Positions 4,745-26,810 of a stretch of DNA of 64,000 nucleotides are shown in pieces (the first letter of the stretch is position 1; every line of letters starts with the position of its first letter). The notes beneath the pieces are model-generated. The model was not told where the DNA came from and did not search any database. It saw nothing but the letters and a program-made list of their open reading frames with translations. Source of the DNA: Gammaproteobacteria bacterium (GTDB taxonomy: Bacteria > Pseudomonadota > Gammaproteobacteria > Thiohalomonadales > Thiohalomonadaceae); the NCBI GenBank assembly GCA_026196575.1, contig JAPHSX010000003.1, forward strand, positions 62,001 to 126,000, read 5' to 3'. A program made the position numbers and the translations under genes.

Positions 4745-6049
4745 TTATGCGGGCCGGAACAGGGCGGCGGTGGCCTGCGGGTTGGAGGCAAAGTAGAGGT
4801 GCAGGTAGCTGGCGGTAAGTCGATGCTGGCGGTAGATCGGCTCTCCGGGTGAGCCGCCACACTGGCGCACACCGTGGGTGATGGGCGTTAGCCCCGTTGC
4901 CATTGCCGAGTGGTGAAAGGTGTGGGCAGTGAGACGCCCCTCGGGCAGCGGGGCGCTCTGCATGCCGAGTCCGGCGAGCTGTGGTTGCATCACCGCATGG
5001 CCCTGCAACAGTCCCACCATCTCTCCCCTGTCGCCCTCCTGGTTCTGCAGTTCATCGAGCAGGTAGAGCATGCCGCCGCACTCGGCGAGGAGCGGCTTGT
5101 GGGCCTGGTGATGGGCGCGAATCGACTGCTTTATCGGCAGATTACTGTCGAGGGTATGCAGGTGCAGTTCGGGGTAGCCACCGGGCAGCCAGAGCGCGTC
5201 GCACGCGGGCAGCTGCGTATCGCGCAGTGGCGAGAAGAAGGTAAGCTCTGCCCCCATGGCACGCAGCAGATCGAGATTGGCCGGATAGATAAAGGCGAAG
5301 GCGGCATCACGGGCGATGGCAATACGCACCCCGGTCAGGAGTGGCGGCGGGGGCTCGCAGTGTGGCGCGCTGAAGGCGACGGCGGCGGGCAGGGGGGTGA
5401 TGCCCGCGTGCTTGATGGCGGCGGCACCGGCTTCGAGTCGTTGCTCCAGATCATCGAGTTCACTCGCCTGCACCAGGCCGAGGTGGCGTTCGGGCAGCAC
5501 CATCGCCTCGTTGCGCAGCAGGGTGCCGTAATAGGGGATATCGTCCGGCAGGCTCTCAGCTAGCATCCCGGCATGGCCCGTTGAGGCGACGCGGTTGGCG
5601 ATGACGCCGGCGAAGGGGAGCTCCTTGTTATTTTGACTGGCGCGGTAATGTTTGAGACCGAAGGCGATGGCGCCGAAGGTTTGTGCCATCGCCGTGGCAT
5701 CGATCACCGCCACCACCGGCACGCCGAAACAGGCGGCGAGATCGGCGCTCGACGGGGTGCCGTCGTAGAGCCCCATCACCCCCTCAATCAGGATCAGATC
5801 GGCCTCTGCCGCCGCTTCGCTGAGCAGGTGGCGGCACGCCGCCTCGCCCACCAGCCAGAGATCGAGCTGGTAGACCGGATGGCCCGAGGCGCGCTCGTGG
5901 ATCATCGGGTCGAGGAAGTCGGGGCCGCTCTTGAACACCCGTACCACGCGCCCCTGGTTGCGATGGTAGCGGGCCAGCGCGGCGGTGACCGTGCTCTTGC
6001 CCTGACCGGAGGCGGGGGCGGCGATGAAGAGGGCAGGGCAGTTTGCCAC
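4745..6049 (-). CDS. cobB: Cobyrinic acid a,c-diamide synthase
   Basis: 434 residues, the usual length for CobB/CbiA. It amidates the a and c side chains of cobyrinate using glutamine and ATP in corrin synthesis. The N-terminal ATPase half starts with the P-loop-like APASGQGKSTVTAALA. The C-terminal half is a type-3 glutamine amidotransferase with the nucleophile in LLAECGGMLYLL. The start is GTG at 6049, overlapping the TAG stop of cobO (TAGTG), so translation is probably coupled. No other ring-synthesis gene is visible here. The enzyme may work on imported or partly made corrinoids, or with genes elsewhere. Confidence 0.92.
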   Translation of the reverse strand: MANCPALFIAAPASGQGKSTVTAALARYHRNQGRVVRVFKSGPDFLDPMIHERASGHPVYQLDLWLVGEAACRHLLSEAAAEADLILIEGVMGLYDGTPSSADLAACFGVPVVAVIDATAMAQTFGAIAFGLKHYRASQNNKELPFAGVIANRVASTGHAGMLAESLPDDIPYYGTLLRNEAMVLPERHLGLVQASELDDLEQRLEAGAAAIKHAGITPLPAAVAFSAPHCEPPPPLLTGVRIAIARDAAFAFIYPANLDLLRAMGAELTFFSPLRDTQLPACDALWLPGGYPELHLHTLDSNLPIKQSIRAHHQAHKPLLAECGGMLYLLDELQNQEGDRGEMVGLLQGHAVMQPQLAGLGMQSAPLPEGRLTAHTFHHSAMATGLTPITHGVRQCGGSPGEPIYRQHRLTASYLHLYFASNPQATAALFRPA

Positions 6050-6651
6050 TAGAACTCCACTCCGGCCTGCGCCTTCACCCCCGCCTTGAAGGCGTGCTTC
6101 ACCTCGCGCATCTCGGTGACAGTGTCGGCGATCGTTATTAATGCCTCGGGTGCGCCGCGACCGGTGATGATCACATGCTGCAGCGGGGGGCGCTGTGCCA
6201 GTGCGCCGAGCACCTCGTCGAGCGGCAGGTAGTGGTATTTGAGGACGATGTTGAGCTCATCCAGCACCACCAGTCCGATCTCGGGGTTGCGAAGCATGTC
6301 GAGGGCGATTGCCCACCCCTTGCGTGCCGTCGCCTCGTCCTGGGGGCGATTCTGTGTATCCCAGGTGAAGCCGTCGCCGGTGACGTGATACGCCACCTCG
6401 GGGAGGCGGGAGAAGAGGGCCTCCTCGCCGGTGGTGCCGCGCCCCTTGATGAACTGCACGATCCCCACCCGCATGCCGTGACCGAGGGCGCGGGCGGCCA
6501 CGCCAAAGGCGGCCGAGCTCTTGCCCTTGCCGTTGCCGGTGTTGACGATAACCACGCCGCGTTCCTCGTCAGCCTGCTGGATCTTCTCTTCCACCACCGC
6601 CTTCTTGCGCGCCATGCGTGCGGCGTGACGCTGTTCTTTTTCCCGATTCAT
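6049..6651 (-). CDS. cobO: Corrinoid (cob(I)alamin) adenosyltransferase, CobO/BtuR type
   Basis: 200 residues. It transfers the adenosyl group of ATP to Co(I) corrinoids. The P-loop IVNTGNGKGKSSAAFG, the following IVQFIKG and the LVVLDELNIVLKYHYL stretch are the family signature. The start at 6651 gives the usual CobO N-terminus, MNREKEQRHAARMARKK. The ATG overlaps the TGA of btuF (TGATG), so coupling is likely. A longer frame continues upstream into btuF but would have no ribosome site. It is the second adenosyltransferase in the same operon; the unrelated PduO type lies at 7527-8078. Confidence 0.95.
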   Translation of the reverse strand: MNREKEQRHAARMARKKAVVEEKIQQADEERGVVIVNTGNGKGKSSAAFGVAARALGHGMRVGIVQFIKGRGTTGEEALFSRLPEVAYHVTGDGFTWDTQNRPQDEATARKGWAIALDMLRNPEIGLVVLDELNIVLKYHYLPLDEVLGALAQRPPLQHVIITGRGAPEALITIADTVTEMREVKHAFKAGVKAQAGVEF

Positions 6652-7469
6652 CAGTGGCTCCATTTTGCGCGGTGGGTGGCCAGCTCCGTCAGTCCGTCGA
6701 GCAGTACCGGGGCGGGGTGGAGGAACTTCTCGCCATCGAGATTGATGAGGGTGAGCGGGGTCTCTGGTTTGATGAAGGCGCACTGGCTGTTTGCCTTGCG
6801 CTCGAAGATGAAGAGCAGTTCGGGCTTGAGCTCGTTAATTAGGGCGTTGAGGGTGGTCACCGCCGCGCCCGCTTTTATGTGACGGATCTTGTCGCTGGTC
6901 TCGACGTTGACGAAGTTCGCTCTGGTGAAGAGGTCGCTCAACCACCGTTTTTTGCCAAAGGAGTAGGGGGAGCCGGAGCAGGCGGAGAGCAGCAGCACCT
7001 TTTTGCCGCGGCCATTGATGCTGGCAGCTACGGTAGTCCACTCCTGGTGAAATGCCGCCACGCGTGCATCGATATCGGCCAGTCCCGCCTCGCTGCCCAT
7101 TAGCTGCAGATTCTCTTCGACCTGCGCCATGCTCTCGAAACCATCGAGGGCGAAGGCGCGGACCCCCTTCGGGGTGATCGCCTTGAGCAGCTCGGGACGG
7201 GTCCAGTTGGAGGTGAAGATAAGCTCGGGTTCCAGCGCCTCAATCGCCTCGCCATCGGGGTCCATCACCCCGCCGGTGTGCGGCCGCTTCAGGGTGTCGT
7301 AGCGGCTGACGCCGACGATGCACGGCTCCAGCCCCAGCCACTGCAGTGACTTGGTGAGATAGGGGGACTGGCTGACGATGCGCGGGCACTCTTTTTCTAT
7401 CGCCTGGCCGGTTGGGCTGACGAGGAGAAACAGCAGTGAAAGCAGTGGCAGATATCGGTTGATGTTCAT
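6651..7469 (-). CDS. btuF: Periplasmic cobalamin/corrinoid-binding protein (BtuF-like)
   Basis: 272 residues with an N-terminal signal sequence (MNINRYLPLLSLLFLLVSPTG). The mature protein is a type-III periplasmic binding protein fold of the BtuF/FhuD class, seen in PRIVSQSPYLTKSLQWLGLE, EPELIFTSNWTRPELL and ELLFIFERKANSQC. Its place between the PduO and CobO genes and behind a cobalamin riboswitch argues for corrinoid rather than heme or siderophore. It would hand B12 from BtuB to the BtuCD pump encoded just upstream at 10274-12048. The stop overlaps the cobO start. Confidence 0.8.
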   Translation of the reverse strand: MNINRYLPLLSLLFLLVSPTGQAIEKECPRIVSQSPYLTKSLQWLGLEPCIVGVSRYDTLKRPHTGGVMDPDGEAIEALEPELIFTSNWTRPELLKAITPKGVRAFALDGFESMAQVEENLQLMGSEAGLADIDARVAAFHQEWTTVAASINGRGKKVLLLSACSGSPYSFGKKRWLSDLFTRANFVNVETSDKIRHIKAGAAVTTLNALINELKPELLFIFERKANSQCAFIKPETPLTLINLDGEKFLHPAPVLLDGLTELATHRAKWSH

Positions 7470-7526
7470 GGAATCTATTGGCCTGAGGGTGATGTGTCGC
7501 GGGTGCCTTCGGGGCTTAAGCTCCTC

Positions 7527-8078
7527 CTACGATTTGGCTTTGGGTTGCCACAATACCTCTTCGCCGTTTTCAAAACGGGCGAGTACGCGGGCAATGACAA
7601 ATAAAAGATCGGAGAGGCGGTTGAGGTAGGCAGTGGTCGCCGGGTTTACTGTCGCGCTCTTTGACAGGGTGTAGAGCCGGCGCTCGGCGCGCCGGCAGAG
7701 GGTGCGCGCCAGGTGACAGTGGGCGGTGGCGCGACCGCCGGCGGGGAGGATGAACTCCTTGAGCCGCGGCAGCGCGTCATTGTAGCCATCGAGGCGCTGC
7801 TCCAGTTCGTCGATGTCACCCTGCTCGATCACGCGGTAGCCGGGAACCGAGAGTTCACCGCCGAGATCAAACAGGCGGTGCTGGATGGTGCTGAACAGGG
7901 CATCCATCCCCTTGGGCAAGGTCTCGGCGCGAATCAGGCCGATGGCGCTGTTGAACTCATCCACCGTACCAAAGGCCTCGACACGGGGGTGATCCTTCTC
8001 CACCCGGCTGCCGTCGCCAAGAGCGGTGGTGCCGTTGTCGCCGGTGCGGGTGTAGATCTTCGAGAGGCGGTGGCCCAT
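7527..8078 (-). CDS. Cob(I)alamin adenosyltransferase, PduO/MMAB type
   Basis: 183 residues. The N-terminal KIYTRTGDNGTTALGDG is the ATP-binding motif of PduO-type enzymes. RTLCRRAERRLYTL and YLNRLSDLLFVIARVLAR are the two other signature helices. This family makes adenosylcobalamin from Co(I) corrinoid and ATP and is unrelated in fold to CobO. It lies between btuB and btuF in the same direction. Having both enzymes in one operon is notable. One may serve de novo corrinoids and the other salvaged cobalamin, but this is inference. Confidence 0.94.
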   Translation of the reverse strand: MGHRLSKIYTRTGDNGTTALGDGSRVEKDHPRVEAFGTVDEFNSAIGLIRAETLPKGMDALFSTIQHRLFDLGGELSVPGYRVIEQGDIDELEQRLDGYNDALPRLKEFILPAGGRATAHCHLARTLCRRAERRLYTLSKSATVNPATTAYLNRLSDLLFVIARVLARFENGEEVLWQPKAKS

Positions 8079-8126
8079 GTCACTTCTCCTGATGAGGGCT
8101 GTGTGGTGTCAACATAGGGTATCGGC

Positions 8127-9872
8127 CTACTGCCGGTAATTGAGGGTGAGGTAGGCGGAGGCACCGGGGGTATTGTAGCCACTGGCCAGTTCATACTCCT
8201 CGTCGAGCAGGTTCTCGATGCGACCACGGAGTGACCACTGGGTGGTAAAACGGTACTCGCCGGTAAGATTGAGCAGGGTGAAGGCGTGCAGTTCGGTATC
8301 ACCGTAATCCATGCGTGGACCGGTATAGCTGGCCTCGATGCCGATGCTGCCATGGGTGCTGACCGGTCCGCTGGCGGTGAAGAAGAGTTTCTTGTCGGCA
8401 CGCCGCAGCAAGGGGTCACCGCTTTGCTCATCTTCCGTTTTTTGCAGGGTGAATCCGCTATTGAGTTGCCAGCTCTCAACCTTGAGGCCGTACTCCAGTT
8501 CGATACCCTGAATGTGGGCGCGGCTGACATTGCTGTAGCCGGAGGGGTAGGTAAAGTTGATGAGGTTTTCGATATGTGTGTCGAACAGGCTGGCCTGCAA
8601 TGCGCCGAAACGGTAACCGAGTTCGCTGGTGACTGACTCCTCGGGCTTAAGTGCCGGGTTGCCGTAGGTCGGATAGTAGCGCTGCAGGAAGGTCGGTGCC
8701 TTGAAGGCGCTGCCGTAGCTGGCGTAGAGACGGCCGCCTCCAAGCCGCCCGCCAAGGGTGATGTTACCGGTCTCCTGATGGCCAAAACCGCTGTGATCGT
8801 CCGTGCGCGCGCCAAGCAGCAGGTCGAGGCGTTTGACGCCCCATTGGTATTGGGCGAACAGGGCGTTGGTGCGGGTTTGTTCATCGTAACTCCCTTCGCT
8901 CTCGCCGCTCTCCGTCACATGGTCGATGCCGGCGCTGAGCAGGCTGTTGTCGCTGGTTTGTATGTCGTGCTGCCAGCTGGCGCTGTGGCGCAGTGAGTGG
9001 ACCCGGTAACCGTCATCGCTCTCGTAGTGATCGGCCGCGTGGCCGAGGATGAGGGTCTGCTGCCAGGGATCGCCCAATCTCCAATTCAGGGCCAGGCTGC
9101 CCGAGTCGTTGCGTTGGGAGGAAGAGCCGTCATCGGTCTCTACATCAGCGTCGCTGTGCAGCAGATTCAGCGAGGCTTGGCCTTTGCTCCCCAGCGGGTA
9201 GTCGATGCCGGCGCCAAGGTTGCTATTGGCGTAACCGTCATCGTCGGGCTCGTAGCCCCAGGTGCCGGGTTTGGCAGCGGAAAATCCGCTGCTCTCCAGA
9301 TAGCCGGCGTTGAGGTGGTAACGGCCGGCGCCAAGCGTACCGCCGCTACCCAGTTCGGTGCGCAGGGTATTATAGCTGCCGCCGCCCAGTGTGGCGTATA
9401 AGCCTGTCTCCTTGCGGGTGAATATTTGCACCACCCCACCGATGGCATCCGCGCCGTAGAGGGTGGAACGTGGCCCACGCACAATTTCTATGCGCTCGAT
9501 CTGCGCCAGCGGCAGATTGTTCCACTTGAAGCCACCATCGATGGCGGAGTTGACGCGTACCCCGTCGATCAGCACCAGCAGATGGTTGCTGTTGGTGCCG
9601 CGCAGCATCAGGCTGGTGTTGCTGCCGGGGCCGCCATTGCGGCTCAGGTCGAGACCCACGGTACGGCTCTGCACAAGTTCCATGAGCGAAGTAGCCTGGC
9701 TGCTTTCTATCTCTGCGCGGGTGATAACGGTGACCGAGGCCAGGGTCTCATCGGCACTCTGTGCCGTTCGCGTGGCCGTTACTACAATCGGGGACAGCGC
9801 TTCATCGGCGGCCTGAATAAGTGTGGAGCCGCCAAGTAGCAGTGCCATGACGGAGAGTTGTTTATTGTTCAT
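8127..9872 (-). CDS. btuB: TonB-dependent outer-membrane cobalamin receptor
   Basis: 581 residues. A signal peptide (about 1-21) is followed by a TonB-box-like SPIVVTATRTAQ, then a plug domain (about 45-150: SLMELVQSRTVGLDLSRNGG, RIEIVRGPRSTLYGADAIGG). The rest is a 22-strand beta-barrel. The size is close to E. coli BtuB and smaller than most siderophore receptors. The cobalamin riboswitch directly upstream supports B12 as substrate. A good Shine-Dalgarno (GAGGAAA) precedes the ATG. The last residues are NYRQ rather than the usual terminal aromatic residue of barrels. The downstream PduO gene follows by 48 bases. Confidence 0.92.
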   Translation of the reverse strand: MNNKQLSVMALLLGGSTLIQAADEALSPIVVTATRTAQSADETLASVTVITRAEIESSQATSLMELVQSRTVGLDLSRNGGPGSNTSLMLRGTNSNHLLVLIDGVRVNSAIDGGFKWNNLPLAQIERIEIVRGPRSTLYGADAIGGVVQIFTRKETGLYATLGGGSYNTLRTELGSGGTLGAGRYHLNAGYLESSGFSAAKPGTWGYEPDDDGYANSNLGAGIDYPLGSKGQASLNLLHSDADVETDDGSSSQRNDSGSLALNWRLGDPWQQTLILGHAADHYESDDGYRVHSLRHSASWQHDIQTSDNSLLSAGIDHVTESGESEGSYDEQTRTNALFAQYQWGVKRLDLLLGARTDDHSGFGHQETGNITLGGRLGGGRLYASYGSAFKAPTFLQRYYPTYGNPALKPEESVTSELGYRFGALQASLFDTHIENLINFTYPSGYSNVSRAHIQGIELEYGLKVESWQLNSGFTLQKTEDEQSGDPLLRRADKKLFFTASGPVSTHGSIGIEASYTGPRMDYGDTELHAFTLLNLTGEYRFTTQWSLRGRIENLLDEEYELASGYNTPGASAYLTLNYRQ

Positions 9873-9994
9873 GTTGTTTCCTCTGCGCTCACCCGCGCGA
9901 AATACATTGGATGAACCAGTGAGGAGGGGCAGGGCTTCGGAGTGAGCAACAGTGGAGACGGTTTTTCACCCGCGCACCGCCCACCGCAGCACTG

Positions 9995-10212
9995 GTATGT
10001 CTGTCGCAGGCCGGTCTCCGGGCTGGCGGTTGGATCTTTCAATCCGGCCCCATCGCCTTCCCGCGTCGTCTGACGCAGTGGCACTGTGATGGTGTTGGTA
10101 ACCGCTTACCGTTGCGGGGGCAGCGTCGGAATTGTGCTGTTCGAATGAAGGGCACGCACCGACTTCCCGTTTCATTCCTCGGGCGAAAGCCGTTGGAACA
10201 CCTGAAACGCCG
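9995..10212 (-). promoter_or_regulatory. Cobalamin riboswitch upstream of btuB
   Basis: Read on the minus strand, the conserved parts appear in order. The 5' part has GGTGTTCCAACGG and then AATGAAACGGGAAGTCGGTG. The core has CCCCCGCAACGG, GCCACTG and GGGAAGGC. The B12 box, AGCCCGGAGACCGGCC, lies at 10009-10024. The spacing of about 120 bases to the btuB start leaves room for an expression platform, but I see no clear U-tract terminator. Control may act on translation of btuB. Binding of adenosylcobalamin would shut off the operon. The exact ends are approximate. Confidence 0.95.
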
Positions 10213-10273
10213 CTGACTCTATCGGTGTGGAGGCGGGGTTGTCAACGTTGAATGTTCAGGCGGCGCGGTTGTT

Positions 10274-11080
10274 TCAGTGGCTTGACGGGGAGTGGGTTTG
10301 GCCCGCCGTCCCCTCGTCCGCCGGGATAAAGAGACGCTCATCTCCCTGCCGCAGCAGTCGCATCGGATGGTGGTAGAGGTGACTTAGTCGCTCCACCGTC
10401 AGCAGCTCCTCACACACGCCGCTCTCCCAGCGGCCATCGCCGTAGAGCAGCAGTGCCCGGTCGCAGTAACGCAGCGCCTGGTTGGGGTCATGGAGCACCA
10501 TTACCACCGTGCGCCCCTCGCGGGCGAGCCGGCGCTGCTGGTGCAGAAGTTGTTGCTGGTGGTGCAGGTCGAGGTGGTTGAGTGGTTCGTCGAGCAGCAG
10601 CAGTTGCGGCGTCTGGGTGAGCAGGGTGGCGATGGCGAGGCGGCGACGCTCGCCACCGGAGAGGGTCTGCACCACGCGCTGTTCCATGCCGCTGAGCGCC
10701 ATCGCCGCCAGGGCCTGATGGACGATGGCGTGATCCTCGTCTCCCTCCTGTTGCCACCGCCCCAGGTGGGGGTGGCGGCCGCTCATCGCCGTCTCCAGCA
10801 CGCTGGTGGGGAAGGGGTCGTGACTCTCCTGCAGCAGCAGCCCCAGCCGTTGGGCGATGTGTCGCCGTGGCAGGGCGGCGAGGGGGTGGTCGTCAAGGCG
10901 GATCGTCCCCGCAGTGGCGGGAAGCAGTCCGGCCAGGGTGTGCAGCAGGATGGTCTTGCCGCTGCCGTTGCCGCCGAGTATCGCCCAGCACTGGCCGGGG
11001 GCGAGGGTCAGCTCCAGTCCCTGACAGAGGGTGCGCCCCCCTGCCTGGATTGCAAGCCCCTCAACCGTCAGCCGCGTCAC
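10274..11080 (-). CDS. btuD: ABC transporter ATPase of the B12/heme/siderophore class (BtuD-like)
   Basis: 268 residues with Walker A GGNGSGKT, signature LSGGERRRL and Walker B LLLLDEPLNHLDL. The FecE/BtuD subfamily matches its partner, the FecCD-type permease directly upstream. The start is GTG at 11080 and overlaps the TGA of btuC (GTGA). Its stop lies about 60 bases before the 5' end of the cobalamin riboswitch, so it is not downstream of that switch. Given BtuB and BtuF nearby, B12 import is the best guess; iron-siderophore or heme import is possible. Confidence 0.85.
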   Translation of the reverse strand: MTRLTVEGLAIQAGGRTLCQGLELTLAPGQCWAILGGNGSGKTILLHTLAGLLPATAGTIRLDDHPLAALPRRHIAQRLGLLLQESHDPFPTSVLETAMSGRHPHLGRWQQEGDEDHAIVHQALAAMALSGMEQRVVQTLSGGERRRLAIATLLTQTPQLLLLDEPLNHLDLHHQQQLLHQQRRLAREGRTVVMVLHDPNQALRYCDRALLLYGDGRWESGVCEELLTVERLSHLYHHPMRLLRQGDERLFIPADEGTAGQTHSPSSH

Positions 11081-12048
11081 GCCCGGTAGCCTCGCTGCAG
11101 CAGGTAGAGAAACAGCGGCACCCCGACCAGTGCCGTAAGCACCCCCACCGGCAGCTGCTGCGGGGCGATCACGGTGCGTGCCAGGGTGTCGGCCAGCAGT
11201 AGCAGGATGGCGCCGCTCAATACCGAGGCGGGGAGCAGCAGGCGGTGGTCGCTGCCCACCAGCAGGCGCAGCATGTGCGGTACCACCAGCCCGACAAAGC
11301 CGATGCTGCCGCCGATGGTGACCGCGGCCGCGGTGAGCAGGGAGGCGAGCAGGTAGAGCTGCAGTCGCAGCGGCACCACGCTCACCCCCAGTGCCCCGGC
11401 CTGCAGCTCACCGCGTGCCAGCAGGTTGAGGTTGCGCGCCTGGGGCAGGCTGAGCAGCAGCCCCAGGGCAAGGATGAGGAGGGCGGGCAGGGGCCGGTCG
11501 GCGTGGCTCAGGTCGCCCATCAGCCAGAAGAGCATCCCCGGTAGGTTCTGCTGCGGGGCGACTGCCAGCAGGAAGCTGATCACTGCCCCCCAGCCGGCGG
11601 CCACCACCACTCCGGTAAGCAGCAGGCGGGTGGGCGACCAGACACCGCGCCCGTGCGCCAGGCCAAACACCAGCACCATCGAACCCAGCGCCCCCGCCAG
11701 CGAGGCGCCGTTGACCGCCAGCGTCGCACCGCCGGCGAGCAGTGCCAGCAGCGCCCCCACCGCCGCGCCGCCGGAGATGCCAAGGATGTAGGGGTCGGCC
11801 AGCGGATTGCCCAGCAGCACCTGCATCTGCACCCCGGCGAGGGCCAGCAGCCCCCCCACGGCGAGGGCGGCAAGGGCGCGCGGCAGGCGCAGTTGCAGCA
11901 CGATGTCGCGATGGATACCGCTGCCCTCGCCAAAGAGGATGGCGGGCAGCTCGCTCGCTGGCACCGTAATGCTCCCCACCATCAGTGCCAGCAGCAGCGC
12001 CAGTACGGTGAGCAGGCCAAGGGCGATGAGGAGTGGCAGGGGGCGCAT
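11077..12048 (-). CDS. btuC: ABC transporter permease, FecCD/BtuC family
   Basis: 323 residues with about ten hydrophobic helices. Family motifs include LRLPRALAALAVGGLLALAG, GNPLADPYILGISGGAAVGA and IGFVGLVVPHMLRLLVG. This is the membrane half of a binding-protein-dependent corrinoid or siderophore importer. It starts eight bases after the stop of the HAD phosphatase gene and has no Shine-Dalgarno of its own, so expression probably depends on that gene. It overlaps btuD by four bases. Confidence 0.85.
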   Translation of the reverse strand: MRPLPLLIALGLLTVLALLLALMVGSITVPASELPAILFGEGSGIHRDIVLQLRLPRALAALAVGGLLALAGVQMQVLLGNPLADPYILGISGGAAVGALLALLAGGATLAVNGASLAGALGSMVLVFGLAHGRGVWSPTRLLLTGVVVAAGWGAVISFLLAVAPQQNLPGMLFWLMGDLSHADRPLPALLILALGLLLSLPQARNLNLLARGELQAGALGVSVVPLRLQLYLLASLLTAAAVTIGGSIGFVGLVVPHMLRLLVGSDHRLLLPASVLSGAILLLLADTLARTVIAPQQLPVGVLTALVGVPLFLYLLQRGYRA

Positions 12049-17991: not shown

Positions 17992-18891
17992 TTATGTGTT
18001 GGATTGAGTCATTTCAACTGATGCAAGGGTATCGGACGTCTCAGGGGAGAATAGCGCCAGCAGCTCGCTGGCATCGTCGCGTTGCAGGCCGTTGCAGCTG
18101 ATGTGGCGCTTTACCGCAAAGGTGGCGCCGCACTGGCCGCCGGCCTCGGTGTAGAGGCGGCGCGTCAGTTCGGTGCTGTGGTTGGAGATGAGCACCGGGA
18201 TGCCGCGCCTGGCGTTGTCGCGAGCCAGTTCCGCCAGTTGTTGCTGCTGTGCCATGGAGAAGCCACCGGCGCTGTAGCTGGTAAAGTTGGCGGAGGTGGA
18301 GAGGGGGACGTAGGGCGGGTCACAATAGATGACATCGCCCTCGCGGGCCTCGCTCATGGTCTGCTCGAAACTGGCGCATTTGAATTCGGCCCGCTGCGCC
18401 TTCTGGTGAAAGGTGCGCATCTCCTGTAGTGGAAAGTAGGGGCGCTTATAACGGCCAAAGGGGACATTAAATTTCCCCTTGGCGTTGTAGCGGCATAGTC
18501 CGTTGTAGCCGTGACGGTTGAGGTAGAGGAAGAGAATGGCGCGTCTCTCGCTGTAGCTCGTGGCGTTAAACTCCTCGCGCAGCGCGTAGAAGCTCTCCTC
18601 GTTGTTGTACTCCGCACTGAAGTAGCGGCGCGCCTCCTCGATGAACCCCTTGCCCTCGTCGCGCAGCCGAGTGTAGAGCTCGAACAGATCACGGTTGGCG
18701 TCGCTCAGTAGATAGTCGTCGTAATTGGTGTTGAGGAACAGCGCGCCGGAGCCGGCGAAGGGCTCGATCAGGCGCCGCCCGGCAGGCAGTCTCTGCGCTA
18801 TCCGCTCGACAAGGCGAAACTTGTTGCCTGCCCATTTGAGAAAGGGACGTAGTGGCGGCGCCGCCGCCCTGGTGTGGTTGTGATCGGTCAT
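17992..18891 (-). CDS. dam: DNA adenine methylase
   Basis: 299 residues. The order of motifs is that of alpha-type adenine methyltransferases: FLKWAGNKFRLVERI (motif X), IEPFAGSGALFLNT (AdoMet binding), and VIYCDPPYVPL (catalytic DPPY). The size and the YLNRHGYNGLCRYNAKG stretch match Dam, which methylates GATC. No restriction enzyme gene lies nearby, so this is most likely the housekeeping enzyme. The start overlaps the stop of argA, so the two are probably co-translated. An orphan phage-type methylase is the alternative. Confidence 0.92.
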   Translation of the reverse strand: MTDHNHTRAAAPPLRPFLKWAGNKFRLVERIAQRLPAGRRLIEPFAGSGALFLNTNYDDYLLSDANRDLFELYTRLRDEGKGFIEEARRYFSAEYNNEESFYALREEFNATSYSERRAILFLYLNRHGYNGLCRYNAKGKFNVPFGRYKRPYFPLQEMRTFHQKAQRAEFKCASFEQTMSEAREGDVIYCDPPYVPLSTSANFTSYSAGGFSMAQQQQLAELARDNARRGIPVLISNHSTELTRRLYTEAGGQCGATFAVKRHISCNGLQRDDASELLALFSPETSDTLASVEMTQSNT

Positions 18892-20213
18892 CAGATGGCT
18901 TTAATGAATACCTTGGAACGGCGCTGGAGGTTGTAGAGCTGTTGCCGTGCCACCGGCAACTCGTCGATGGGGGCCGCCTCAAAACCGCGTTCCTGAAACC
19001 AGTGGGCGGTACGGGTGGTGAGGACAAAGAGCCGGTTGATGTGGCGGGCGCGGGCCTGCAGGGTGATGTAGTCGAGCAGGGTGTCGCCACGCCCCTCCTT
19101 GCGGTACTCGTCGCGCACCGCCAGACAGGCCAGCTCGCCAAACCCCTCCTCGGTGAAGGGGTAGAGGGCGGCGCAGCCAATGATGGTGCCGTCGCGTTCC
19201 ACCACGGTGAAGTGGTCGATCTCGGTCTCCAGCCGCTCACGCGAGCGGCGCACCAGCACCCCCTCGTTCTCCAGCGGCGCGAGCAGCTCCAGGATGCCGC
19301 CGACATCGTCGATAGTGGCCTGGCGAATGTCTTCGTAGCCCCGGGCGCTGATCAGGGTGCCGATGCCGTCACGGGTAAAGAGCTCCATCAGCAGCGAGCC
19401 GTCCAGGTGACGGTCGATGAGGTGGGCACGCTTGACCCCCTTGGCGCAGGCGTAGCGGGCGCTGTCGAGCGCCCGGCCCAGCGCCTCGTTCAGGGTATGC
19501 GCCGTGTGTAGGTAGTCAGCGGCCTCCTTGAGGTTCAGCTGGCGGATGAGGGTGCCATCCTCGCGCTGTAGCCCGGGACTGTCGAGCAGATAGATGAGCT
19601 TGTCGGCGTGCAGCGAGACGGCCGCCTCGGTGGCCACATCCTCGGCGCTGAGGTTGAAGACCTCACCGGTCGGCGAGTAGCCGAGCGGCGGCAGCAGCAC
19701 GATCGCCCCCTCGTTGAGCTGGCGCCCGAGCGCCTCGGTGTCGATGCGCCGCACCTCGCCGGTGTGCAGGTAGTCGACGCCGTCGCGTACTCCCAGCGGC
19801 TTGGCGGTGACAAAGTTGCCGGAGGCGACGCGAATCCGTGCCCCGGCCATCGGTGAGTTGGCCAGCCCCATGGAGAGCAGTGCCTCGATCTCCACCCGCA
19901 CCGTGCCGGTCGCCTCCTTGACGCAGGCGAGGGCCGCCGCGTCGGTGACGCGCAGGCCGTTGACGTAGTGCATCTCCACGCCGCGTTCCTCCAGCCGTCT
20001 GGCGATCTGCGGGCGCGCGCCGCTGACCAGCACCAGCCGCACCCCGAGGCTGTTGAGCAGGGCGATGTCATGCACCATGCTGGCGAACTGCGCCTCGGCG
20101 ATCACCTCGCCGCCGAAGGCGATGACAAAGGTGCGACCACGGAACGCGTTGATGTAGGGGGAGAAGTCCCGGAACCAGCGTACAAAGGTCTGTTGTTCGA
20201 GTGGTTGGTTCAT
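18891..20213 (-). CDS. argA: N-acetylglutamate synthase (kinase-like plus GNAT domains)
   Basis: 440 residues, the usual ArgA length. The N-terminal amino-acid-kinase fold (about 20-290) has RTFVIAFGGEVIAE and RLVLVSGARPQIARRL. The C-terminal GNAT domain (about 295-440) has ELACLAVRDEYRKEGRGDTL, the acetyl-CoA loop. It makes N-acetylglutamate from acetyl-CoA and glutamate, the first step of arginine synthesis. With argE at 22360 and argF and argD at 56-58 kb, most of the linear arginine pathway lies in this window. Confidence 0.96.
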   Translation of the reverse strand: MNQPLEQQTFVRWFRDFSPYINAFRGRTFVIAFGGEVIAEAQFASMVHDIALLNSLGVRLVLVSGARPQIARRLEERGVEMHYVNGLRVTDAAALACVKEATGTVRVEIEALLSMGLANSPMAGARIRVASGNFVTAKPLGVRDGVDYLHTGEVRRIDTEALGRQLNEGAIVLLPPLGYSPTGEVFNLSAEDVATEAAVSLHADKLIYLLDSPGLQREDGTLIRQLNLKEAADYLHTAHTLNEALGRALDSARYACAKGVKRAHLIDRHLDGSLLMELFTRDGIGTLISARGYEDIRQATIDDVGGILELLAPLENEGVLVRRSRERLETEIDHFTVVERDGTIIGCAALYPFTEEGFGELACLAVRDEYRKEGRGDTLLDYITLQARARHINRLFVLTTRTAHWFQERGFEAAPIDELPVARQQLYNLQRRSKVFIKAI

Positions 20214-22359: not shown

Positions 22360-23511
22360 TTACAGGCAAAAGCGCCGGATCAGCCCCTGCAGCAGCTCAA
22401 TGGTGGGTTGCAGGCGGTCAAGGGCAAGGTACTCGTCTGGCTGGTGCGCCTGGGCGATATCGCCGGGGCCGAGGATGATGGTCTCCATCCCCAGTGCATT
22501 GAGGTAGGGCCCCTCGGTGCAGAAGGCGACCGCCTCGCTGTCGTGGCCGGTAAGGCGCTCCGCCGCCTCGACGATGGCCGAACTCCTCGGGGTGTGCAGC
22601 GGCGGTGTCCCCTCGAACAGGTGGCGTACCTCCCAGCCCAGGCGGCTGTCGCCCAGCAGGGCGTGCAGGCGCCGGTTGAGGGTCTCGCGCAGCTCCTCCA
22701 GCTCCATCCCCGGTAGCGGGCGCAGGTCGATATGCAGCTCGCAGCTGCCGCAGATGCGGTTGGGGTTGTCGCCGCCGTGGATATGGCCGAGGTTGAGGGT
22801 GGGTACCGGCACGCTGAAACGCTCATCGCGGTGTTGCGCCTGTAGTGTCTCGCGCCAGCTCAGCAGATCGCCAATCACCCGGTACATCCCCTCCAGTGCG
22901 CTGACCCCGAGCGACGGGTCGCTGGAGTGGCCCGCCCGCCCGGTGAGGGTGATCGCCTCCATCAGGATCCCCTTGTGGGCATTGACCGGCCGCAGCCCGG
23001 TCGGCTCACCGATCACCGCGTAGCGTGCCCGTGGCCGCCCCAGCTCCACCAGCGCCTTGGCCCCGTCCATCGAGCTCTCCTCGTCGGCGGTGGCGAGGAG
23101 GATCAGGGGCTGTTGCAGCGGTTGTTGTATAAACTCCTTCGCCGCCTCGATCGCCAGGGCGAAGAAGCCCTTCATGTCGGAGGTGCCAAGGCCGTAGAGG
23201 CGGTTACTCTGTTCGGTGAGGCGGAACGGGTCGTGCTGCCAGCGCCCCGCATCGTAGGGGACGGTGTCGGTGTGACCTGCCAGTACCAGCCCGCCGGGGC
23301 CGCTGCCCAGGGTGGCGATGAGGTTGGCCTTGTGGGGCTGGTCGGGCAGCGGCATTACCTCCACCGCAAAGCCGAGGTCGTGGCACCACTCGGCCAACAG
23401 GTTAATCACCCCCATATTGTCGGTATCGAACTCGGGGGAGACGCTGCTCATCGACGGTGTGCCGATGAGCTCGGTGAGCATCCGCAGCAGGGAGGGGGGC
23501 GTATTCTTCAT
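22360..23511 (-). CDS. argE: Acetylornithine deacetylase
   Basis: 383 residues, standard for ArgE. Metal-site motifs of the M20 family are present: VLAGHTDTVPYD, GLGTSDMKGFFALAIEA and ATADEESSMDGAKAL, with GEPTGLRPVNAHKG and the C-terminal GPGDIAQAHQPDEY. It hydrolyses N2-acetylornithine to ornithine. The start MKNTPPSLLRMLTELIGTPS fits the family, although no Shine-Dalgarno is visible. The frame extends about 30 codons further without support. It is transcribed divergently from the GNAT-C39 gene. Confidence 0.94.
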   Translation of the reverse strand: MKNTPPSLLRMLTELIGTPSMSSVSPEFDTDNMGVINLLAEWCHDLGFAVEVMPLPDQPHKANLIATLGSGPGGLVLAGHTDTVPYDAGRWQHDPFRLTEQSNRLYGLGTSDMKGFFALAIEAAKEFIQQPLQQPLILLATADEESSMDGAKALVELGRPRARYAVIGEPTGLRPVNAHKGILMEAITLTGRAGHSSDPSLGVSALEGMYRVIGDLLSWRETLQAQHRDERFSVPVPTLNLGHIHGGDNPNRICGSCELHIDLRPLPGMELEELRETLNRRLHALLGDSRLGWEVRHLFEGTPPLHTPRSSAIVEAAERLTGHDSEAVAFCTEGPYLNALGMETIILGPGDIAQAHQPDEYLALDRLQPTIELLQGLIRRFCL

Positions 23512-23630
23512 GGGCAGATTGTGGGGCGAAAGAAAGTTTCCCACAAGGGCTGGAATATAGTGCATGGAACCAATCCCGGTGCTACATTGCGCGCGATTCA
23601 ACCTTGGTCTCCCCGCAGGAGCGGCACGCC

Positions 23631-24737
23631 ATGATCCGCAAGGCTACACTTCACGATCTCGAAGCGCTGGTGGCGCTGGAAAACCGCAGCTTTACCACCG
23701 ACCGCCTCTCCCGCCGCAGCTTTCGCCACCTGCTGACCAAGGCCCACGCCGTCACCCTCATCGATGAGCTCGATGGGCAGCTGGCCGGTTACGCCACCGT
23801 GTTGTTCAATATGGGCACCTCGCTGGCGCGCCTCTATTCTATCGCCGTCGATGGCGAGTTTCGTGGCCAGGGGGTCGGCAAGCGGCTGGTGGAGGCGAGC
23901 GAGCAGGCGGCGCGCGATGGCGACTGTGTGGTGTTGCGCCTTGAGGTGCGCAGCGATAACCATGCCTCGCTGGCGCTGTTTCGTCATATGGGCTACCGGG
24001 AGTTTGGTCACTACGACGACTACTACGAGGATCACATGGATGCGCTGCGCTTCGAGAAGGAGCTGGTGCCCCACCTCGACCCGGATCGCGCCCGCGTCCC
24101 CTTCTATCGCCAGACTCTGGAGTTCACCTGCGGCCCCGCCGCACTGATGATGGCGATGCGCGCCCTCGACCCGGCCATTGAGTATGCCCGTGCCCTGGAG
24201 ATCGCGATCTGGCGCGAGTCGACTACCGTCTTCATGACTGCCGGTCACGGCGGTTGCGGCCCCCACGGCCTGGCCCTCGCCGCCCATGAGCGCGGCTTCG
24301 AGGTGGAGCTGTTTCTTTCGGAGGCGGGTGCTCTCTTCATCGACTCGGTGCGCAGCGCTGAGAAGAAGGAGGTGATGACGCTGGTGCAGGAGGGTTTCGA
24401 GCGGCGGGTGCAGGAGGCGGAGATTCCGGTCCACTACCGTCAACTCAGTATGGCCGAGATGCGTAACTACTTCGAACAGGGGGCGATCCCGGTGGTACTG
24501 ATCAGCTCCTACCGCATCTACAAGGAGAAGTTTCCCCACTGGGTGGTGGTTACCGGCTTTGATGAGCGCTACGTTTATGTGCACGATCCCTTCGTGGATG
24601 ACGAGAAGGGCAAGACCGCAACCGACTGCATCAACATGCCGATCCTGCAAAAAGATTTTGATCGTATGGCGCGCTATGGCAAGAGCGGGTTGCGTGCCTC
24701 GCTGGTGCTGTCTATGCCGAAAGGAGATAACAAGTGA
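23631..24737 (+). CDS. GNAT acetyltransferase fused to a C39-like cysteine peptidase domain
   Basis: 368 residues. The N-terminal half (about 1-150) is a GNAT domain; LYSIAVDGEFRGQGVGKRLV is the acetyl-CoA loop. The C-terminal half (about 155-368) is a papain-like fold of the C39 type (DUF3335-like). Cys167 in LEFTCGPAALMMA, His303 in FPHWVVVTGF and Asp319 in YVHDPF form a plausible catalytic triad. GGAG precedes the ATG at 23631. The stop overlaps the GTG start of the ATP-grasp gene. This fixed pair has been discussed among predicted amidoligase systems that modify peptides or proteins. The substrate is unknown. Confidence 0.88.
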   Translation: MIRKATLHDLEALVALENRSFTTDRLSRRSFRHLLTKAHAVTLIDELDGQLAGYATVLFNMGTSLARLYSIAVDGEFRGQGVGKRLVEASEQAARDGDCVVLRLEVRSDNHASLALFRHMGYREFGHYDDYYEDHMDALRFEKELVPHLDPDRARVPFYRQTLEFTCGPAALMMAMRALDPAIEYARALEIAIWRESTTVFMTAGHGGCGPHGLALAAHERGFEVELFLSEAGALFIDSVRSAEKKEVMTLVQEGFERRVQEAEIPVHYRQLSMAEMRNYFEQGAIPVVLISSYRIYKEKFPHWVVVTGFDERYVYVHDPFVDDEKGKTATDCINMPILQKDFDRMARYGKSGLRASLVLSMPKGDNK

Positions 24738-26206
24738 GCCGACAGATCATCGTCGTCGAGAACCTGGCCGACTGGAAGCTGCCGCAGGGGGAGCTGGAGG
24801 TGGTCCATGTGGACGACTATCTCACCGGGCGCGATTACTTCAAGCAGAAGAACATCCAGGTCATCAACCTCTGTCGCAGCTACCGTTACCTGAGCGTCGG
24901 TTACTACTGCTCGCTGCTGGCCGAAGCGCGCGATCACCGCGTGGTGCCGACGGTTAAGACCATGCTCGATCTCAGCCGCAAGTCGATGTACAGCCTCGAC
25001 ACCGAGAATCTCGATGCGAAAGTGCAGAAGGCCTTTGCCAAGCATGCCCAGGATGAGCACACCAACCTCTTTAGCGCCGACTGTTACTTCGGCCAGAGCG
25101 AATACGGCGCCCTCGCCTCGGTGGCGCGCCAGCTGTTTGAGCTCTTCCCCGCCCCCATTCTGCGCCTCACCTTCCAGCGTGGCAGCGTGTGGCGCCTGCA
25201 CAGTATCAAACCGACCTCGCTGCACAAGCTGACGGCAGAGCAGCGCGAACGCTTTGGTGCCGCGCTGGAAAATTACCGTAAGAAGCGCCACCGAAGCATG
25301 AAGGGGCGCCCCTCGCCGCGTTATGACATCGCCATCCTGCACGACCCGAACGACCCGCTGCCCCCCTCGAACAAGCGTGCCTTGACCAATTTCATCAAGG
25401 CGGGGGCGGAGCTGGGGCTGGCGGTGGAGCTCATCGAGCGCGCCGACTACGGTCGCCTGGCCGAGTACGACGCCCTCTTTATTCGTGACACCACTCGTAT
25501 CGATCACTACACCTACCGTTTCGCCAAGAAGGCCGAGAGCGAGGGGATGGTGGTGATCGACGACCCGCGCTCCATCCTGCTCTGTGCCAACAAGGTCTAC
25601 CTGGCCGAACTGCTGCGTGCCAATAAGGTACCGACCCCGAAGACGGTAATCGTCGGCAAGGGCGACCTCGATGCCGCCGAGCAGCAGCTCGGTTACCCGC
25701 TGGTGCTGAAGGTGCCGGACGGCTCCTTCTCGCAGGGGGTGTTCAAGGCGGAGAACCGGGAGAAGATGGTGGAGGTAACCGGCCGCCTGTTCAAGGAGTC
25801 GGAGCTCATCCTCGCGCAGGAGTATCTCTATACCGAGTTTGACTGGCGTGTCGGCATCCTCAACCGTCAGCCGATCTTCGTCAGTCAGTACTTTATGTCG
25901 AAAAAACACTGGCAGATCGTCAAGTACGACGGCAAGGGTGGCTTCGTTGAGGGGGGCTTCAAGACCATGGCGGTAGCGGACGCGCCTCCCGGGGTGGTGG
26001 AGGTGGCGCTCAAGGCGGCCAACCTCATCGGTGACGGTTTTTACGGCGTCGACCTCAAGGAGGGTAGGGAGGGGGTCTTTGTCATCGAGGTGAACGATAA
26101 CCCAAGCCTTGAAAGCGGCGTCGAGGATGTGGTGCTGAAGGAGGGGCTCTACCGCCTGGTGATGGGAGAGTTCCTGCGGCGTCTGGACTTGCAGCGGAGG
26201 CGATAA
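24734..26206 (+). CDS. RimK-like ATP-grasp ligase with a RimK-associated N-terminal domain
   Basis: 490 residues. Residues about 1-270 form the family-specific N-terminal region (LADWKLPQGELEVVHVDDYL, INLCRSYRYLSVGYYCSLLAE). Residues about 285-480 are an ATP-grasp domain with PLVLKVPDGSFSQGV and the Mg-binding signature FVIEVNDNPSLESG. ATP-grasp enzymes of this class join a carboxylate to an amine, as in glutamate tailing of ribosomal protein S6 by RimK. It starts with GTG inside the end of the GNAT-C39 gene, so both are made in a fixed ratio. It is much longer than RimK (about 300 residues), so it is not the S6 enzyme itself. Confidence 0.9.
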   Translation: MSRQIIVVENLADWKLPQGELEVVHVDDYLTGRDYFKQKNIQVINLCRSYRYLSVGYYCSLLAEARDHRVVPTVKTMLDLSRKSMYSLDTENLDAKVQKAFAKHAQDEHTNLFSADCYFGQSEYGALASVARQLFELFPAPILRLTFQRGSVWRLHSIKPTSLHKLTAEQRERFGAALENYRKKRHRSMKGRPSPRYDIAILHDPNDPLPPSNKRALTNFIKAGAELGLAVELIERADYGRLAEYDALFIRDTTRIDHYTYRFAKKAESEGMVVIDDPRSILLCANKVYLAELLRANKVPTPKTVIVGKGDLDAAEQQLGYPLVLKVPDGSFSQGVFKAENREKMVEVTGRLFKESELILAQEYLYTEFDWRVGILNRQPIFVSQYFMSKKHWQIVKYDGKGGFVEGGFKTMAVADAPPGVVEVALKAANLIGDGFYGVDLKEGREGVFVIEVNDNPSLESGVEDVVLKEGLYRLVMGEFLRRLDLQRRR

Positions 26207-26351: not shown

Positions 26352-26810
26352 ATGAGTATTCTGTCGTGGTTGAAACAGGTTGGCTCCGCTGCCGTGAGCG
26401 CCGACCTGATTAATACTGAAGCAATGACCTTTGCCAAGGGTGAAGAGCAGTTCCACGGACTGGACATGAAGGGGGCGCTGGAGGCCCACACCGCCTGGAC
26501 CAAGCGGTTGGAGGGGAAGCTTAACGGTGAAAACCAGGAGGCGCTCGATATTGCCACCGTGGCCTCGGACTGCCAGTGTCAGCTCGGCAAGTGGATTCAC
26601 GGCACGGCGAAGCAGCAGTTTGGTAATTCCCCCGATTATGAGGAGCTGCGCCGGGTGCATGCCGATTTTCACCTCAAGGCGGGTGAGATTCTCAATAACG
26701 TGCTCAACGGCGATCACACCATGGCGGCGAGCAACCTCAAGGAGATCCGCTACCAGTCGGGCAGCGTACAGCTCTCCCTGGTTCGTCTCTACTCCCACGC
26801 TCAGCACTAA
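26352..26810 (+). CDS. Stand-alone chemoreceptor zinc-binding (CZB) protein
   Basis: 152 residues, all or nearly all one four-helix CZB domain. The zinc ligands are visible as His46 (LEAHTAWTKRL), Cys76 (CQCQLGKWIHG), His103 and His107 (RRVHADFHLKAGEIL). CZB domains sense zinc or oxidants and usually sit on chemoreceptors or on diguanylate cyclases such as DgcZ. Here there is no output domain. The protein may act in trans on a receptor or cyclase; the large GGDEF-EAL protein 1.5 kb away is one candidate. A strong Shine-Dalgarno (GGAGAAGGAG) and an FNR-like box lie upstream. Confidence 0.88.
   Translation: MSILSWLKQVGSAAVSADLINTEAMTFAKGEEQFHGLDMKGALEAHTAWTKRLEGKLNGENQEALDIATVASDCQCQLGKWIHGTAKQQFGNSPDYEELRRVHADFHLKAGEILNNVLNGDHTMAASNLKEIRYQSGSVQLSLVRLYSHAQH

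What the first reader, a model, noticed from the sequence alone, without database searches (positions are those of the whole stretch)
23631..26206. Coupled GNAT-C39 peptidase fusion and RimK-like ATP-grasp ligase: an uncharacterised modification system
Three enzyme activities sit in two genes that overlap by four bases: an acetyltransferase, a papain-like peptidase with an intact-looking Cys167-His303-Asp319 set, and an ATP-grasp ligase of unusual length. From the families, the ligase would join an amino acid or peptide through an amide bond. The peptidase may cut or trim it and the acetyltransferase may cap an amine. Such pairs have been predicted as amidoligase systems, but I know of no established substrate. 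No substrate peptide gene is evident beside it, so the target may be a cellular protein or a small metabolite.
Basis: partly seen in the sequence, partly recalled or inferred. Interest (0 to 1): 0.78.

Follow-up and report, generated by a model that had tools for sequence, protein, structure and literature searches.

The report
Acetyltransferase-peptidase fusion with RimK-like ligase
Two overlapping bacterial genes encode an acetyltransferase fused to a papain-like peptidase and an ATP-driven amide-bond-forming ligase; the pair is old, conserved and already named but never characterised, and comparison of 161 relatives suggests it builds or edits an acetyl-capped small peptide.

Summary
Window 23631-24737 (+) encodes GNAT + DUF3335 (C39-like peptidase); 24734-26206 (+) encodes RLAN + RimK ATP-grasp. 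They overlap by four bases (GTGA). Catalytic residues are conserved: Q161, C167, H303 in 60/60 homologues, D319 in 58/60. Of 161 RLAN loci surveyed, 104 have the GNAT-C39 fusion beside the ligase and 36 a GNAT alone. One 14-locus clade has instead a C39-like peptidase, RLAN ligase, GCS2-type ligase and N-formylglutamate-amidohydrolase-like enzyme (all four in 12). In 369 Gammaproteobacteria, 55 of 56 genomes with strong DUF3335 also have RLAN. No conserved substrate-peptide gene was found. The genome has its own S6-type RimK, RimI and glutathione synthase, so those jobs are taken. Best reading: an N-terminal-acetyltransferase-type enzyme caps an amine, the RimK/LysX-type ligase adds an amino acid, the optional C39 domain trims. 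Working analogues: NAGGN osmolyte synthesis and mammalian NAA/NAAG synthesis. A protein target is not excluded. Families and fusion are published; the substrate is unknown. A new member of a known, uncharacterised kind.

The parts
23631..24737 (+). GNAT (residues ~1-150) fused to DUF3335 C39-like peptidase (residues ~157-361); 368 aa
   Evidence: Pfam PF00583 and PF11814; catalytic residues conserved; AlphaFold pLDDT 90.7, GNAT fold nearest RimI/Ard1
24734..26206 (+). RLAN domain (residues ~27-175) + RimK/LysX-type ATP-grasp ligase (residues ~240-465); 490 aa, GTG start
   Evidence: Pfam PF14401 and PF08443; invariant ATP-grasp residues; AlphaFold pLDDT 83, nearest ArgX, LysX, RimK and D-Ala-D-Ala ligases
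24734..24737 (+). four-base stop/start overlap (GTGA) of the two genes
   Evidence: read from the sequence
22360..23565 (-). argE (acetylornithine deacetylase), divergent, 65 bp away; neighbour in 21 of 161 loci, probably inherited gene order
   Evidence: NCBIfam NF003474 562 bits, cut-off 460; survey
18891..20213 (-). argA (N-acetylglutamate synthase), second conserved divergent neighbour; not thought to be part of the system
   Evidence: NCBIfam NF003641 676 bits, cut-off 344; neighbour in 12 of the first 81 loci

Best explanation
A two-gene operon for making and editing a small N-acetyl-capped peptide or amino-acid amide inside the cell. The GNAT domain, of the N-terminal-acetyltransferase (RimI/Ard1) type, acetylates the alpha-amine of an amino acid or short peptide. 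The RLAN/RimK-type ATP-grasp enzyme activates a carboxylate as an acyl phosphate and joins it to the amine of a further amino acid. The C39-like domain cleaves or transfers the amide, for turnover or length control, and is optional. Shown here: the families, the conserved catalytic residues, the coupling, the absence of a conserved substrate gene, and the presence of separate RimK, RimI and GshB genes. Inferred: that the product is a small acetylated peptide, the order of steps, and the role of the C39 domain.
For: (1) GNAT-ligase coupling: 140 of 161 RLAN loci have the GNAT-C39 fusion (104) or a GNAT alone (36) as neighbour. In 369 genomes 55 of 56 with strong DUF3335 also have RLAN; Fisher p about 1e-44, not corrected for kinship. 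(2) The GNAT profile hits N-terminal acetyltransferases best among solved structures (SSO0209, Ard1, RimI). It keeps the acetyl-CoA loop in most members, a Glu in the LEVR motif (E105, 60/60) and the YY...DA hairpin. (3) The ligase is nearest ArgX, LysX and RimK, which join amino acids through amide bonds. (4) No small ORF is conserved across clades beside the pair, arguing against a dedicated peptide substrate. (5) In the sister clade the partners are a GCS2 carboxylate-amine ligase and an FGase-like enzyme, both from families that act on small glutamate derivatives. (6) DUF2817, or an M14 carboxypeptidase, lies next to the pair in 8 and 6 loci. (7) Known analogues with the same parts: NAGGN synthesis uses a GNAT/ATP-grasp enzyme with a peptidase in one operon (PMC8070244; that the enzyme holds an ATP-grasp domain is from the TIGR03103 model and own knowledge); mammalian NAA is made by Nat8l and joined to glutamate by Rimkla (PMC8836185).
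Against: The GNAT type most like this one (RimI, Ard1, Naa30) acetylates proteins or peptides, which would fit a protein target equally well. No transporter, regulator or downstream metabolic gene is consistently linked. The organisms (soil Pseudomonas, Dyella, Azospirillum, sulphur bacteria) share no obvious osmotic niche that would support an osmolyte. The product was not observed.
Confidence: 0.42

Rival explanations
1. A protein-modification system: the RimK-like ligase adds amino acids to the C-terminus or a side chain of a cellular protein, the GNAT acetylates its N-terminus or the added residue, and the C39 domain removes the tag.
For: RimI-like and RimK-like enzymes together resemble the ribosomal-protein modifiers. 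C39 peptidases act on peptides. An RMND1-family (DUF155) gene, a family tied to mitochondrial translation in eukaryotes (own knowledge), is close by in 11 loci. No conserved transporter or metabolic partner.
Against: Canonical RimK and RimI are present separately in this genome, so S6 and S18 are not obvious targets. No third gene is conserved across clades. The sister clade uses GCS2- and FGase-type enzymes.
Confidence: 0.32
2. A transient amine-protection pathway: acetyl (or gamma-glutamyl in the sister clade) caps an amine, the ligase extends the molecule, and a deacylase (ArgE, DUF2817 or FGase type) uncaps it, as in arginine or LysW-type biosynthesis.
For: Each neighbourhood type includes an acyl-adding enzyme (GNAT or GCS2) and often an amidohydrolase or carboxypeptidase (FGase 12, DUF2817 8, M14 6, ArgE 21 loci). 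ArgJ is also present, so ArgE may not be strictly needed for arginine. The best fold match is ArgX.
Against: ArgE here is above the equivalog cut-off for acetylornithine deacetylase and sits with ArgA, suggesting ordinary arginine genes and inherited order. No LysW-like small gene was found. Most type A loci lack any deacylase neighbour.
Confidence: 0.13
3. A tailoring module for a ribosomally made peptide (RiPP or graspetide-like).
For: ATP-grasp ligase, C39-type peptidase and GNAT are all common RiPP tailoring domains (own knowledge).
Against: No conserved precursor ORF of 18-140 aa across clades on either strand within 3-4 kb. No exporter linked. C39 is not fused to an ABC transporter.
Confidence: 0.05

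Closest known systems
DUF3335 (PF11814) and RLAN-RimK (PF14401/PF08443) protein families
   Same: All domains match above the curated cut-offs; the GNAT fusion is recorded in the literature (PMC10318531).
   Different: Nothing essential; no member with a known substrate was found.
NAGGN osmolyte synthesis (asnO-ngg-peptidase operon, PA3459-PA3461 of Pseudomonas aeruginosa)
   Same: GNAT + ATP-grasp + peptidase coded together; joins two amino acids and N-acetylates one.
   Different: GNAT and ATP-grasp are fused to each other there, with an amidotransferase-type partner and a different peptidase; here GNAT is fused to C39, no such partner is nearby, and the TIGR03103 score is 18.9 bits against a cut-off of 569.
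Mammalian NAA/NAAG synthesis (Nat8l + Rimkla)
   Same: An acetyltransferase followed by a RimK-family ligase makes an N-acetyl dipeptide.
   Different: No RLAN domain and no C39 domain (own knowledge); the parallel is functional only.
RimK (S6 glutamate ligase), LysX/ArgX
   Same: Same ATP-grasp fold, nearest solved structures.
   Different: Extra RLAN domain; far below the equivalog cut-offs; the genome has a separate RimK (477 bits).
Sister four-gene operon C39-RLAN-GCS2-FGase
   Same: Homologous ligase and homologous C39 peptidase (hhalign 95% probability).
   Different: No GNAT; carries a carboxylate-amine ligase and an amidohydrolase-like enzyme instead.

Membership tests
DUF3335 (PF11814) GNAT-peptidase fusion | DUF3335 above curated cut-off with intact Cys-His-Asp and N-terminal GNAT | tested here: met
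   301 bits against 25; C167 and H303 60/60, D319 58/60
RLAN-type ATP-grasp ligase | RLAN (PF14401) plus RimK ATP-grasp with intact nucleotide and metal residues | tested here: met
   172 and 42 bits; K287, K326, D440, E452, N454 invariant
GNAT-C39/RLAN coupled pair | the two genes adjacent and co-occurring across genomes | tested here: met
   104 of 161 loci adjacent; 55 of 56 DUF3335 genomes have RLAN
RimK, ribosomal protein S6 glutamate ligase | NF007764 equivalog score at least 331 bits | tested here: not met
   34.6 bits; another gene of the genome scores 477
RimI, ribosomal protein S18 acetyltransferase | TIGR01575 score at least 86.4 bits | tested here: not met
   80-83 bits, close to the cut-off; a separate RimI scores 130
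LysX/ArgX amino-group carrier system | TIGR02144 at least 275.6 bits, with a LysW-like carrier gene | tested here: not met
   75 bits; no conserved small ORF nearby
NAGGN synthetase system | GNAT/ATP-grasp fusion TIGR03103 (at least 569 bits) with asparagine-synthase-like partner | tested here: not met
   18.9 bits; no such partner beside the pair in the window
Glutathione synthase | NF003573 at least 272 bits | tested here: not met
   18 bits; a separate GshB scores 463
Graspetide or other RiPP cluster | conserved precursor peptide gene | tested here: not met
   no small ORF conserved across clades
N-acetyl-peptide synthesis (functional class) | product is an N-acetylated peptide or amide | not testable with these tools
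   needs metabolite analysis or an enzyme assay

The most novel reading that the evidence does not exclude
RLAN systems are a widespread, unrecognised class of bacterial N-capped peptide synthesis in which the capping enzyme is interchangeable: acetyl by a GNAT in most lineages, gamma-glutamyl by a GCS2-type ligase in one clade. The ligase and, usually, a homologous C39 peptidase stay constant and make a new intracellular metabolite.
Probability: 0.22. Interest if true: 0.7.

Novelty: new member of a known kind. Interest (0 to 1): 0.45.

Why it matters
The ligase is present in roughly a fifth of sampled gammaproteobacterial genomes (RLAN in 80 of 369) and in Pseudomonas, Dyella and Azospirillum, yet has no assigned substrate. 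The survey narrows the question: GNAT + ligase is the common core, C39 is dispensable, and one clade swaps the GNAT for GCS2- and FGase-like enzymes. It points to tractable organisms and a concrete class of product for testing.

Tried and rejected
S6 or S18 as targets: set aside because canonical RimK and RimI are encoded separately; S6 C-terminal tails read from relatives showed no pattern separating genomes with and without RLAN, though many tails were not recovered. Glutathione: a separate GshB exists. Precursor peptide: all six frames, 18-140 aa, within 3-4 kb of 161 loci gave only lineage-restricted or shadow ORFs. Mobile or defence origin: no PADLOC hit; among phages only partial ATP-grasp-region matches, at most 44% of the query. 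ArgE as a dedicated partner: kept only within a weak rival. A first length-based gene caller missed real genes because of shadow ORFs and was replaced by a codon-model caller of my own. Iyer et al. 2009 (PMC3268129), the key prior prediction, is not held, so its exact content could not be checked. The fold of the RLAN domain alone was not searched. Promoter and terminator scans of the region gave nothing above chance.

Full report
Observation. The first gene runs 23631-24737 on the + strand (368 aa, ATG behind AGGAG). The second runs 24734-26206 (490 aa, GTG behind AAAGGAG). The stop of the first and the start of the second overlap by four bases. Pfam finds Acetyltransf_1 and DUF3335 in the first, RLAN and RimK ATP-grasp in the second, all above their curated cut-offs. 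The ligase keeps its nucleotide and metal residues in 25 divergent relatives.

Models. AlphaFold gives pLDDT 90.7 for the fusion and 83.4 for the ligase. The GNAT part is nearest RimI-type and archaeal Ard1 N-terminal acetyltransferases. The ligase is nearest ArgX, RimK, LysX and D-Ala-D-Ala ligases, over about 300 residues that do not cover the whole chain. Profile searches agree. The GNAT has the acetyl-CoA loop (position 78 R or Q in 51/60, G81 in 53/60, G or A at 83 in 58/60), E105 in 60/60 and the YY...DA hairpin that aligns with the N-terminal acetyltransferase SSO0209. The general-acid tyrosine position of RimI (assigned from memory) is Tyr or Phe in the fusions, Phe in the window; in 24 stand-alone GNATs it is always Tyr.

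Survey. I collected 161 RLAN loci: the window, 80 from unnamed gammaproteobacterial genomes and 80 from named records. 104 have DUF3335 next to the ligase (68 upstream on the same strand, 31 upstream divergent, 5 other); 36 have a GNAT but no DUF3335; 14 belong to the sister type; 7 have no partner, at least three of them because the contig ends. In the tree the sister type is one clade (SH-aLRT 100) and GNAT-only loci concentrate in one clade of Xanthomonadales relatives, 27 of 28 rows. None of 14 GNAT-only genomes tested has DUF3335 anywhere, while two control Pseudomonas genomes do. So GNAT + ligase is the common core and the C39 domain is dispensable.

Sister operon. In 12 loci the order is C39-like peptidase, RLAN ligase, GCS2-like ligase, FGase-like enzyme, all co-directional; two more loci of the clade keep part of it. 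Its C39 protein is homologous to the C39 domain of the fusion, with the Cys-Gly-Pro box and the His and Asp motifs aligned (hhalign probability 95%, E 1.6e-8).

Other neighbours. DUF2817 lies between the ligase and the GNAT-C39 gene in 8 loci from several families. A zinc carboxypeptidase (M14) lies divergently in 6. DUF155 lies within 3 kb in 11. ArgE lies divergently in 21. ArgE scores as a true acetylornithine deacetylase and travels with ArgA; I read this as inherited gene order. ArgJ is also present in the genome, so a role for ArgE in this system is not excluded.

Genome context. RLAN occurs in 80 of 369 class-wide genomes and strong DUF3335 (over 250 bits) in 56; 55 have both (Fisher p about 1e-44, uncorrected for kinship). 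The window's genome has its own S6-type RimK (477 bits, cut-off 331), RimI (130 bits, cut-off 86.4) and glutathione synthase (463 bits, cut-off 272).

Substrate. A six-frame search for small ORFs within 3-4 kb of all 161 loci found nothing conserved across clades. A dedicated peptide substrate encoded beside the pair is not supported.

Mechanism. The parts match two known ways of making N-acetyl dipeptides. In Pseudomonas aeruginosa the PA3459-PA3461 operon makes NAGGN with a GNAT-family enzyme (Ngg, which N-acetylates one glutamine and forms the peptide bond), an asparagine-synthase-like enzyme and a peptidase (PMC8070244). In mammals Nat8l makes N-acetylaspartate and Rimkla joins it to glutamate (PMC8836185). 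I therefore favour an acetyl-capped small peptide or amide (0.42), with protein modification as the main rival (0.32). The acetylation and ligation chemistry follow from the families; the product, the order and the C39 role are inferred.

Novelty. DUF3335-GNAT fusions are in the literature (PMC10318531, citing Iyer et al. 2009, which I could not read), and both families are in Pfam. The window's pair is an ordinary member.

Noticed in passing
window 4745-12048: Looks like a corrinoid/cobalamin uptake and processing cluster (TonB receptor, ABC parts, PduO-like adenosyltransferase, CobO/CobB-like genes), judged from the sequences only.
   Followed up: no
window 17992-18891: Dam-like DNA methyltransferase gene beside argA, kept next to argA in several close relatives (cluster 9).
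   Followed up: no
L209 1399-2208 (own genome): Another ATP-grasp protein (269 aa) of unclear assignment, hit by the RimK model (54.6 bits).
   Followed up: no
L277 (Pseudomonas aeruginosa plasmid record NZ_CP133752.1): An RLAN ligase beside glutamate/aspartate ABC transporter genes with no GNAT-C39 annotated within 5 kb.
   Followed up: partly
L128: A contig binned as Sulfuricurvum carries an RLAN ligase 68% identical to the window's and nested in its gammaproteobacterial clade; binning error or transfer.
   Followed up: no
L050, L054, L066, L095, L100, L103 and others: DUF155 (RMND1-family) gene directly downstream of the ligase in several families; meaning unknown.
   Followed up: partly
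window 26352-26810: Chemoreceptor zinc-binding (CZB) domain protein downstream of the pair; not seen as a conserved neighbour in the survey.
   Followed up: no
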